Below the pieces are notes generated by a model. The model saw only the letters and a program-made list of their open reading frames with translations, was not told where the DNA came from and made no database searches. This document shows, one piece after another, positions 10,127 to 15,934 of a stretch of DNA of 32,020 nt (its first letter is position 1; every line of letters begins with the position of its first letter). Both the position numbers and the translations under genes were made by a program. This DNA comes from a bacterium (GTDB taxonomy: Bacteria; Elusimicrobiota; Elusimicrobia; UBA1565; UBA9628). Location: the NCBI GenBank assembly GCA_021810245.1, contig JAJZJF010000013.1:1-32020 (forward strand). Reading direction: 5' to 3'.

Positions 10127-13007
<2,881 letters not shown>

Positions 13008-13011
<4 letters not shown>

Positions 13012-14141
13012 ACGGGAGCCTCGACTCTCATCGGCATAATGATAAAGAAATAATCTTTCCCTTTTTCAGGTTCGACGCGAACCGGGTTAGAAGAAGTGGT
13101 AAAACTCATCCGAACCGATTCTGAATCAATTCTCTTAAGCGCTTCAACCATAAACGCCGGGTTAAAGGCGATATCAAATTTATTCCCCGAATATTTAATT
13201 GGAATTTCATCGTCATATTCAGAATAGGGGCTAATCGCAGAAATTTTAAGGGCTTCCGAATTAAGCGAATAAGAAACCGTTCCGCCGCGATCCCCCACGC
13301 ATAAAGCGGCGCGTTTGGTCGAGGTCAATAAATCGGCGGTGTTGGCCGTGATGGAAAAATCTGTTTTTTCCGGTATCACCCTTTTATAATTGGGAAAAGT
13401 TCCACTGACCAAACGGGATAGAAGAGTAGTTTGATTAAATTCAAACACGATTTGATTATCCGTAATGGTTATTTTAATCTTTTTTGCGGAATCAGAATCT
13501 ATTTTATGAAGAGAAGCCAACCGCAAAAGCTCGGAAAGAGTTTTATGTGGAATAATGGACTGAAAACTGGCTTCTTTAGGAAGAGCTTCTTGAGAACTGA
13601 CAGCTAAACGGCGGCCGTCAGTAGCGATCATATCCAGTTTTCCTTTATCGGCGGACCAAAAAACCCCGCTTAACACATGATTAACTTCCGGCAAAGACGT
13701 TGAAAACAAGGTTTTTGAAATCATATCCAAAATTGGATTCGCTAAAACGCTGAAAGTTTTTTCTTTATTGACTGTAGGGAAAACCGGATATTCGTTTTTA
13801 GGACTTCCGGAAACTAAAAAATAAGACCTTCCGCATCTTAGCGAAAGTTTTCCATTGGAATCAATGCTTAAAGAAACGTTTTGGCCTTCGGGAAAACTAT
13901 GCAACATTTCGGAAAATTTTTTAGCGGGAACGGCGATGCTTCCCGTGCCCTCTATTTGAGCTTTAACATAATGTTTAACCCCTATTTCCAAATCCGTTGC
14001 CGTTAGCTTTAAAAAAGAATCTTCGGTCTCTAAAAGAAAATTCATTAATATTGGAAGAGTGGTTCGGCTGGACAATCCCGCTTGAATTGTTTGAATTCCA
14101 TCCACTAGATCATTTTTATTACAAGTAACTTTCATATTCAT
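13008..14141 (-). CDS. dnaN: DNA polymerase III beta sliding clamp
   Basis: MKVTCNKNDLVDGIQTIQAGLSSRTTLPILMNFLLET, AVPAKKFSEMLHSFPEG, C-terminal FFIIMPMRV. ATG 14135 (MKVTC) has better SD spacing than 14141. Confidence 0.95.
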
Positions 14142-14321
14142 ATCCTTAGTAAAGGCATGGGTTTTGTGGATAAAATAATTTAAATATAAAAATCTCTTTT
14201 AAAATCAAACAAAAAACCATTCTTTGTTTAAAGATTGAAAATGAAATTTTATCCACAGTATTCACAAAAATTTTTTTATAAACAAATTTTTTAAGGTTTA
14301 ATCTTTTTATCCCCATCTTTA
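14142..14321. other. Candidate chromosomal replication origin (oriC) between dnaA and dnaN
   Basis: 180-bp visibly AT-rich gap. Perfect DnaA boxes TGTGGATAA (14165-14173) and TTATCCACA (14249-14257), the latter directly abutting near-consensus GTATTCACA (14258-14266); near-match TTATCCCCA at 14307-14315. AAAAATTTTTTTATAAACAAATTTTTTAA tract alongside. Confidence 0.75.
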
Positions 14322-15704
14322 TCACTCAAATTTTTTATCTTCAACCATTTTGATATCAGACTGAAGTTTATTGATCATTTCCAGGAAAAAAGGGTCTTCT
14401 TCGACTTTTTTCCTGATTTTATCCCTTGCGTGAATAACAGTCGTATGATCTTTTCCGCCAAATGCTCTGCCGATATCTTTGAGGGACATATCAGTCATCG
14501 CGCAACACAAATACATGGCGACCTGTCTGGGAATAGAAATAGAAGCGTAGCGGTGACTCCCTTTTAAATCTTTTACATCAACCGAATATTTATAAGCGAC
14601 AACCCTTTGAATCGTCTCTACTGATATAGAATACGAATTTTCATTAGCGATTGAATCTTTTAAAATTTCTTTGGCGTAGTCAATCGAGAGCGGATTACCC
14701 GTCGCCAATGAGAAAGCTTTAAGGCGAATCAAGGCCCCTTCTAAAGCGCGAACGTTGGTTTTTATGGAACTAGAGAGAAATAAAATCACGTCATCCGGAA
14801 CAAAAAAGCCTTCAAGCTCAGCTTTTTTTCTTAAGATGGCGATGCGGGTTTCTATATCCGGAATCTTGATATCAGCGATAACCCCCCACTCAAGCCTTGA
14901 AATCAAACGCTTTTCATATGGAGTCATTTCTTTGGGTGAGCGGTCTGAAGATATCACCAATTGCTTGTGGGCGTTAAAAAGGGCGTTAAAGGTGTGAAAA
15001 AACTCTTCCTCGCTTCTTTCTTTAGCGATTAAAAACTGTAGGTCATCCATTAGTAGGCAATCTAAATTCCGATATTTGTTGCGAAAACTTTCGGTTGTGT
15101 TGTGGCGGATGCATTCCACATATTCGTTGACGAATTGCTCGGAAGTCGTGTAGAGAACGCGGGTGGAGGGATTTTCTTTTCTCAAAGCGTGTCCTATCGC
15201 GTGCATGAGGTGAGTTTTCCCAAGCCCCACGCCGCCGTAGATCACGAGGGGATTATATTGGATTCCAGGTTTTCTGACGATGGCTTCGGCGGTCGCATGG
15301 GCAAAGCGGTTGGAAGCCCCCACGACAAAAGTCGAAAAAGTATATTTCGGGTTTAAATCGCTGGCTCTAAAATCATATTGAGGGCTTGGTTCTGAAATGG
15401 GGTCGGTCTCAAGAATCCCATTTTTAATATCCTTGGCCAAATCGTAATCATAGTCAATTGAAGACACCGACTCTAGGTTTTTCTTGAAATGGTCTAAAAT
15501 TTTTTTCTGATAATTTTTTTTAATCCAATCGGAAAAATATTTATTGGGAACCTTGAGGCGCAAAACTCCATGATCTAAATTAATCGATTCAATGGGTTGC
15601 AGCCACAGGTCCGCTTGTTCATCCCCAATATCGCCGCGAAGCTCATCGATGGTTTTTGACCACAGAGCGGTTATTTGTGAGTTATCCACAGGTTTTCCAC
15701 CCAT
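14322..15704 (-). CDS. dnaA: Chromosomal replication initiator protein DnaA
   Basis: NPKYTFSTFVVGASNRFAHA, GGVGLGKTHLMHAIGH (Walker A), LLMDDLQFL (Walker B), SRLEWGVIADI, C-terminal GKDHTTVIHARDKI DnaA-box-binding motif. Confidence 0.98.
   Translation of the reverse strand: MGGKPVDNSQITALWSKTIDELRGDIGDEQADLWLQPIESINLDHGVLRLKVPNKYFSDWIKKNYQKKILDHFKKNLESVSSIDYDYDLAKDIKNGILETDPISEPSPQYDFRASDLNPKYTFSTFVVGASNRFAHATAEAIVRKPGIQYNPLVIYGGVGLGKTHLMHAIGHALRKENPSTRVLYTTSEQFVNEYVECIRHNTTESFRNKYRNLDCLLMDDLQFLIAKERSEEEFFHTFNALFNAHKQLVISSDRSPKEMTPYEKRLISRLEWGVIADIKIPDIETRIAILRKKAELEGFFVPDDVILFLSSSIKTNVRALEGALIRLKAFSLATGNPLSIDYAKEILKDSIANENSYSISVETIQRVVAYKYSVDVKDLKGSHRYASISIPRQVAMYLCCAMTDMSLKDIGRAFGGKDHTTVIHARDKIRKKVEEDPFFLEMINKLQSDIKMVEDKKFE
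15682..15690 (+). promoter_or_regulatory. Perfect DnaA box TTATCCACA inside the 5' end of dnaA
   Basis: Sequence gagTTATCCACAggttttccacccat; overlaps early dnaA codons (P V D N). Confidence 0.75.
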
Positions 15705-15819
15705 GTGAATCTAAAGAGATTTTTTCTAAATTATATTTTAAAAATAAGTACTTTTTAATTAAAAATTCAGTCAAATAAAGCTCCCACGGCAAATTAATTC
15801 GTCTGATATAAAAGAAACA

Positions 15820-15844
15820 GGAATGCGAATAATAGGCGCATTCC
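15820..15844. repeat. Inverted repeat GGAATGCG-N9-CGCATTCC upstream of dnaA
   Basis: Perfect 8-bp arms 15820-15827 and 15837-15844 with loop aataatagg. Confidence 0.7.
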
Positions 15845-15934
15845 GTATCTTTATCTTAGCTCATTTCTCGACGAGAGTCAAACTACATTTGAATGAAGAG
15901 ATTGAATTTAAGCGGAATGTGATAGGATTAAGAA

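What the first reader, a model, noticed from the sequence alone, without database searches (positions are those of the whole stretch)
14142..14321. Likely oriC with tandem abutting DnaA boxes in the dnaA-dnaN gap
Two perfect TTATCCACA boxes in opposite orientation, one fused head-to-tail with near-consensus GTATTCACA (14249-14266), next to a long A/T tract. Abutting DnaA boxes beside an unwinding region are a hallmark of bacterial basal origin unwinding sites. I did not see a clear DnaA-trio (TAG repeats), so the unwinding element may differ.
Basis: partly seen in the sequence, partly recalled or inferred. Interest (0 to 1): 0.6.

Follow-up and report, generated by a model that had tools for sequence, protein, structure and literature searches.

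The report
Elusimicrobiota replication origin around dnaA
This stretch is almost certainly part of the chromosome replication origin of an uncultured Elusimicrobiota bacterium; it has an ordinary two-part layout on either side of the dnaA gene, but it lacks the usual unwinding motif and carries a conserved cluster of DnaA-binding sites built into the start of dnaA.

Summary
The 180-bp dnaA-dnaN gap holds two perfect, opposed DnaA boxes, one abutting GTATTCACA, beside AT tracts; two perfect boxes in 180 bp are expected with P about 5e-7. Congeners keep the boxes while the filler changes. The genome is an Elusimicrobiota MAG. In a congener's 773-kb contig the cumulative GC-skew minimum lies about 0.9 kb from the gap.

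A three-box, 11-bp-phased array (TTATNCACA-NN-TGTGGATAA-NN-TGTGNATAA) straddles the dnaA start next to an AT tract. It is nearly always single-copy and at dnaA in several Elusimicrobiota families, often with the GTG start codon inside its third box; the window has a degenerate copy (15682-15712). So the origin is bipartite.

No DnaA-trio exceeds chance in either half (positive controls passed). Which AT tract opens is unresolved: strand asymmetry favours the gap, while duplex instability and family-wide conservation favour the dnaA-upstream tract. DnaA binding and unwinding are inferred, not shown.

The parts
14142..14321 (.). dnaA-dnaN gap, proposed oriC2 half
   Evidence: strand-asymmetry switch placed here
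14165..14173 (-). Perfect DnaA box TTATCCACA, dnaN-proximal
   Evidence: identical in all four congeners
14174..14248 (.). AT-rich tract (15% GC); the TTAT ends of both neighbouring boxes face it
   Evidence: block TTTTTTATTTAATTTTAAAAGAGATTTTT largely kept in congeners
14249..14257 (+). Perfect DnaA box TTATCCACA, first of the abutting pair
14258..14266 (+). Abutting DnaA box GTATTCACA
   Evidence: GTATTCACA or GTATCCACA in all four congeners; abutting same-direction pairs (spacing 9) are the commonest same-direction spacing in relatives
14267..14306 (.). AT-rich tract (10% GC) on the ACA side of the pair: best-placed unwinding candidate within the gap
   Evidence: polarity rule and PMC5043019
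14307..14315 (+). Near-perfect box TTATCCCCA
15682..15690 (+). Perfect DnaA box TTATCCACA; the likely dnaA GTG start codon is 15689-15687 on the minus strand
15693..15701 (+). Second box of the start-codon array, TTTTCCACC
15704..15712 (-). Third, inverted and degenerate box of the array, AGATTCACA
   Evidence: The array as a whole has 4 mismatches and the next best site in the window has 8
15713..15767 (.). AT-rich tract (9% GC) on the ACA side of the array; it contains the least stable 40 bp of the window (15727-15766); rival unwinding element
14322..15704 (-). dnaA; the true start is probably GTG 15689 because ATG 15704 is ATA in the three other congeners aligned
13008..14141 (-). dnaN
12709..13011 (-). 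DciA-family helicase-loading protein, next to gyrB
   Evidence: PF05258; context as in PMC5109545

Best explanation
This is oriC of an Elusimicrobiota chromosome, a bipartite DnaA-box origin with dnaA in the middle. DnaA binds the cluster in the dnaA-dnaN gap (abutting pair, TTATCCCCA, opposed dnaN-proximal box) and the phased array over the dnaA start (inferred). The two complexes probably loop out dnaA, as in Bacillus subtilis and Helicobacter pylori (inferred by analogy). Strands open at an AT tract on the ACA side of a box array, without a canonical DnaA-trio, and DciA then helps place the helicase (inferred). In this organism the opening is more likely in the gap (candidate 14267-14306), because leading and lagging strands switch between dnaN and dnaA (computed on relatives). 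DnaA on the start-codon array probably also represses dnaA expression (inferred).
For: Box excess and conservation. Skew minimum or maximum skew contrast at dnaA/dnaN in several genera. Third-position skew calls dnaA lagging in G001 (LR 20), G004 (34), G025 (14), G017 (3) and G047 (271), and dnaN leading in four of these five; the dnaA shift is small in G005, where strand asymmetry is small. E. coli dnaA, which is leading, shows no such bias. Array at dnaA start. dnaA-dnaN-dciA-gyrB-gyrA context.
Against: Outside this genus the gap is not AT-rich: in 20 relatives above 52% GC the least stable site lies upstream of dnaA (median z 4.8 against 2.7 in the gap, P 4e-6). No DnaA-trio marks the gap. 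dnaA may have its own codon bias, since its skew is somewhat beyond the lagging mean in several genomes; at four-fold sites the likelihood ratios are only 1.8-20. In G004 the dnaN GC3 value leans lagging (LR 2.9). No DnaA binding or unwinding data for this phylum were found.
Confidence: 0.68

Rival explanations
1. Same bipartite origin, but the strands open upstream of dnaA at the AT tract next to the start-codon array (15713-15767), and the gap cluster is only the DnaA-loading half: the reverse of B. subtilis and H. pylori.
For: Least stable 40 bp of the window (z 4.18); it is the least stable or nearly least stable site of 20 kb in most of 20 relatives although their genomes are 56-67% GC; the boxes have the R1-type polarity toward it; the module is conserved at the dnaA start across families. 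In nearly all the comparison taxa, most with the trio in the gap, the gap rather than the upstream region is the unstable side.
Against: dnaA would then be replicated as a leading-strand gene, yet it looks lagging in five of six genomes and the sixth is uninformative. The upstream tract may also hold a dnaA promoter. In Epsilonproteobacteria, unstable upstream sites proved not to be the unwinding site (PMC5043019).
Confidence: 0.27
2. The array and AT tract at the dnaA start are only a promoter and autoregulatory operator of dnaA, and the origin is the gap alone (monopartite).
For: Genus-conserved promoter TTGACT-17-TAAGAT at 15881-15853; the array covers the start codon.
Against: 11-bp phasing, inverted first box and strong adjacent instability are more than an operator needs; bipartite layout is common in origins of this gene order.
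Confidence: 0.15
3. The boxes are a DnaA-titration or regulatory cluster and the origin lies elsewhere.
For: DnaA-box clusters exist outside origins (general knowledge).
Against: Skew minimum and strand switch lie at dnaA-dnaN in several genera.
Confidence: 0.02

Closest known systems
Bipartite dnaA-flanking oriC of Bacillus subtilis, Clostridioides difficile, Helicobacter pylori and other Epsilonproteobacteria
   Same: DnaA-box clusters on both sides of dnaA; dnaA-dnaN gene order; strand switch in the gap
   Different: No DnaA-trio; the most conserved array sits over the dnaA start codon; in GC-rich relatives the unstable AT tract is upstream of dnaA, not in the gap
Basal unwinding system (BUS): tandem DnaA boxes, short GC spacer, DnaA-trios
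   Same: Abutting boxes in the gap, with a weaker second abutting box also at the dnaN-proximal site in family relatives
   Different: No (CTA)n tract at the right side and distance; only a T-tract that meets the loose NAN rule no better than shuffled sequence. A same-class relative (L135) does have box-13 bp-CTACTACTA
Pseudomonas-type oriC in the rpmH-dnaA interval
   Same: The rival model's unwinding site upstream of dnaA
   Different: No rpmH neighbour here; a gap cluster is present as well; recalled knowledge with PMC5109545, not tested further

Membership tests
Bacterial DnaA-box oriC | Cluster of DnaA boxes beyond chance, conserved in relatives | tested here: met
Bacterial DnaA-box oriC | At the GC-skew minimum or strand switch | tested here: met
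   (congeners and relatives; the window's own assembly is in 152 contigs)
Bacterial DnaA-box oriC | Unstable AT-rich element beside boxes of the right polarity | tested here: met
   two candidates, 14267-14306 and 15713-15767
Bacterial DnaA-box oriC | DnaA binding and DnaA-dependent unwinding | not testable with these tools
   Needs footprinting and P1 nuclease or KMnO4 assays
Bipartite oriC | Box clusters both upstream and downstream of dnaA | tested here: met
Bipartite oriC | DnaA-mediated loop joins the two clusters | not testable with these tools
   Needs electron microscopy or 3C with purified DnaA
BUS (tandem boxes plus DnaA-trios) | Tandem or abutting boxes | tested here: met
   14249-14266
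BUS (tandem boxes plus DnaA-trios) | At least three DnaA-trios within about 16 bp on the ACA side, beyond chance | tested here: not met
   window P 0.72 (gap) and 0.14 (upstream); 2 of 52 gaps and 0 of 55 upstream regions at P<=0.05 against 9 of 10 positive controls

The most novel reading that the evidence does not exclude
Elusimicrobiota use a trio-less bipartite origin whose roles are reversed: the strands open upstream of dnaA, beside a three-box phased array that contains the dnaA start codon, so that origin firing and dnaA translation compete for the same DNA.
Probability: 0.25. Interest if true: 0.6.

Novelty: new variant of a known kind. Interest (0 to 1): 0.4.

Why it matters
No description of an Elusimicrobiota origin was found in the open literature searched. 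The phylum offers a natural contrast: a family-wide lack of the DnaA-trio next to a same-class relative that has one, and an array embedded in the dnaA start codon. This lets one ask how DnaA chooses a melting site without trios, and whether initiation and dnaA expression are coupled through shared boxes.

Tried and rejected
A first DnaA-trio test looked on the wrong side of the boxes; polarity was then fixed from loci with clear CTA repeats and the test redone. Only the redone test counts.

A pooled 16-kb skew profile over GC-rich relatives was dominated by codon bias and is not used.

The GATGATGAAGAGGATGAT stretch before dnaN in many relatives was considered as a trio. Its polarity is wrong, it overlaps the ribosome-binding site, and column frequencies are unconvincing.

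The three-box array was first thought special to the phylum, but an exact copy lies 58 bp upstream of the dnaA alignment start in one Clostridia locus (L062) and a 3-mismatch copy in another (L059). The partial count (18 loci) was a naming error and is superseded.

An E. coli 13-mer-like ATCTCTT motif in the gap was noted but is single and weak. Rfam found nothing.

Full report
What is there. The window is one contig (G000:C35) of a 2.03-Mb, 152-contig genome. DnaA relatives with names are Elusimicrobia MAGs. Gene order on the minus strand is dnaA, dnaN, dciA (PF05258), gyrB, gyrA; a T2SSE-type ATPase gene runs the other way from dnaA. The gap 14142-14321 has perfect boxes at 14165-14173 (-) and 14249-14257 (+), GTATTCACA abutting at 14258-14266, and TTATCCCCA at 14307-14315. 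Two perfect boxes in 180 bp are expected about 5 times in 10 million at the genome's own box density.

Conservation. In the four congeners aligned, the dnaN-proximal perfect box is identical and the abutting pair persists with single-base changes, while much of the filler changes. Among 46 non-redundant relatives the gap holds 17 perfect boxes against 0.03 in shuffles, with preferred geometry: abutting same-direction pairs (spacing 9, 11 cases), an inverted box starting 19 bp after a pair box (19 cases), and a dnaN-proximal box often 43-44 or 64-65 bp further on. At the dnaN-proximal site a second, weaker abutting box is visible in the column frequencies.

Origin position. Reading 773 kb of congener G001 in pieces, the cumulative GC-skew minimum is at 623,997; the gap is at about 624,837-625,017. 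The strongest skew contrast in G005 (40-120 kb windows), and in G025, G017 and G047, also falls at or within a few kb of dnaA-dnaN in most window sizes. Genes were then split into leading and lagging by position. In G001, G004, G025, G017 and G047 dnaA lies with the lagging genes (GC3 likelihood ratios 20, 34, 14, 3, 271; four-fold sites 3.8, 3.5, 2.9, 1.8, 20), and dnaN mostly with the leading ones. In G005 strand asymmetry is weak and dnaA is uninformative. E. coli dnaA, a leading-strand gene, is not C-biased. Orthologues are not independent, so the ratios should not be multiplied. The inference is that replication switches strand between dnaN and dnaA.

The missed half. Over the dnaA start there is an array TTATNCACA-NN-TGTGGATAA-NN-TGTGNATAA: in 41 non-redundant relatives, spacing 11 occurs in 27 same-direction and 30 inverted pairs, and in 35 of 41 an in-frame GTG lies inside a box near the start. 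A pattern search with up to 3 mismatches finds it in 105 of 295 Elusimicrobiota genomes, nearly always once, with no hit of the reversed control. Where loci were examined it usually sits at dnaA: 24 of 30, including a family with about 45% DnaA identity where it almost always starts 8 bp before the alignment start, and most of ten further loci from other families. The window has it with 4 mismatches; the next best site has 8. It is not unique: two Clostridia of 69 other loci carry it upstream of dnaA, not over the start. ATG 15704 is ATA in the other congeners aligned, so GTG 15689, inside the perfect box, is the likely start.

Unwinding element. Canonical BUS polarity, TTATCCACA-box-GC-(CTA)n, was read from loci with clear repeats and agrees with published criteria (PMC8287927; PMC5043019; PMC7561715). 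With it, 9 of 10 controls are significant, but only 2 of 52 Elusimicrobiota gaps and 0 of 55 upstream regions. A T-tract next to the window's pair meets the loose published rule (three NAN motifs), but not beyond chance. L135, of another family in the class, has box-13 bp-CTACTACTA in the gap.

The conflict. The least stable 40 bp of the window is 15727-15766 (z 4.18); the gap's best is 14169-14208 (z 3.85) and the tract beside the pair 14270-14309 (z 3.52). In 20 GC-rich relatives the upstream tract is far less stable than anything in the gap (median z 4.8 against 2.7, P 4e-6), whereas taxa with trios in the gap show the opposite. So stability points upstream, and strand asymmetry points to the gap. 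In Epsilonproteobacteria a similar upstream instability proved misleading. I therefore favour the gap for this organism, at roughly 0.7 to 0.3.

Verdict. An ordinary kind of origin in a phylum whose origin has not, as far as searched, been described, with an unusual start-codon array and no trio. Presence, position and conservation are computed; DnaA binding, looping, melting and autoregulation are inferred.

Noticed in passing
window 15805-15881 (minus strand): Genus-conserved promoter TTGACT-17-TAAGAT followed at once by hairpin GGAATGCG-N9-CGCATTCC and a T-rich run, before dnaA: looks like an attenuator or a short terminated transcript. Fold z-scores -4.4, -3.1, -5.0 and -0.6 in four congeners.
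   Followed up: partly
L135 (gap, near dnaN): A same-class relative of another family carries ATATTCACA-13 bp-CTACTACTA, a canonical-looking DnaA-trio, and lacks the array at its dnaA start codon; the two origin types coexist in one class.
   Followed up: partly
L016-L029, just before dnaN: Trinucleotide-like GATGATGAAGAGGATGAT stretch between the dnaN-proximal boxes and dnaN, overlapping the ribosome-binding site.
   Followed up: partly
L062 and L059 (Clostridia), about 50-60 bp upstream of dnaA: The same three-box array, exact in L062, in unrelated bacteria: convergence or a wider oriC1 motif.
   Followed up: no
L208-L212 (family f12): Three-box array present, but no dnaA found within the 3-kb loci; dnaA may have moved away from the origin in this family.
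   Followed up: no
window 12691-13011: dciA follows dnaN directly with no recF between them, unlike the common dnaN-recF order.
   Followed up: no
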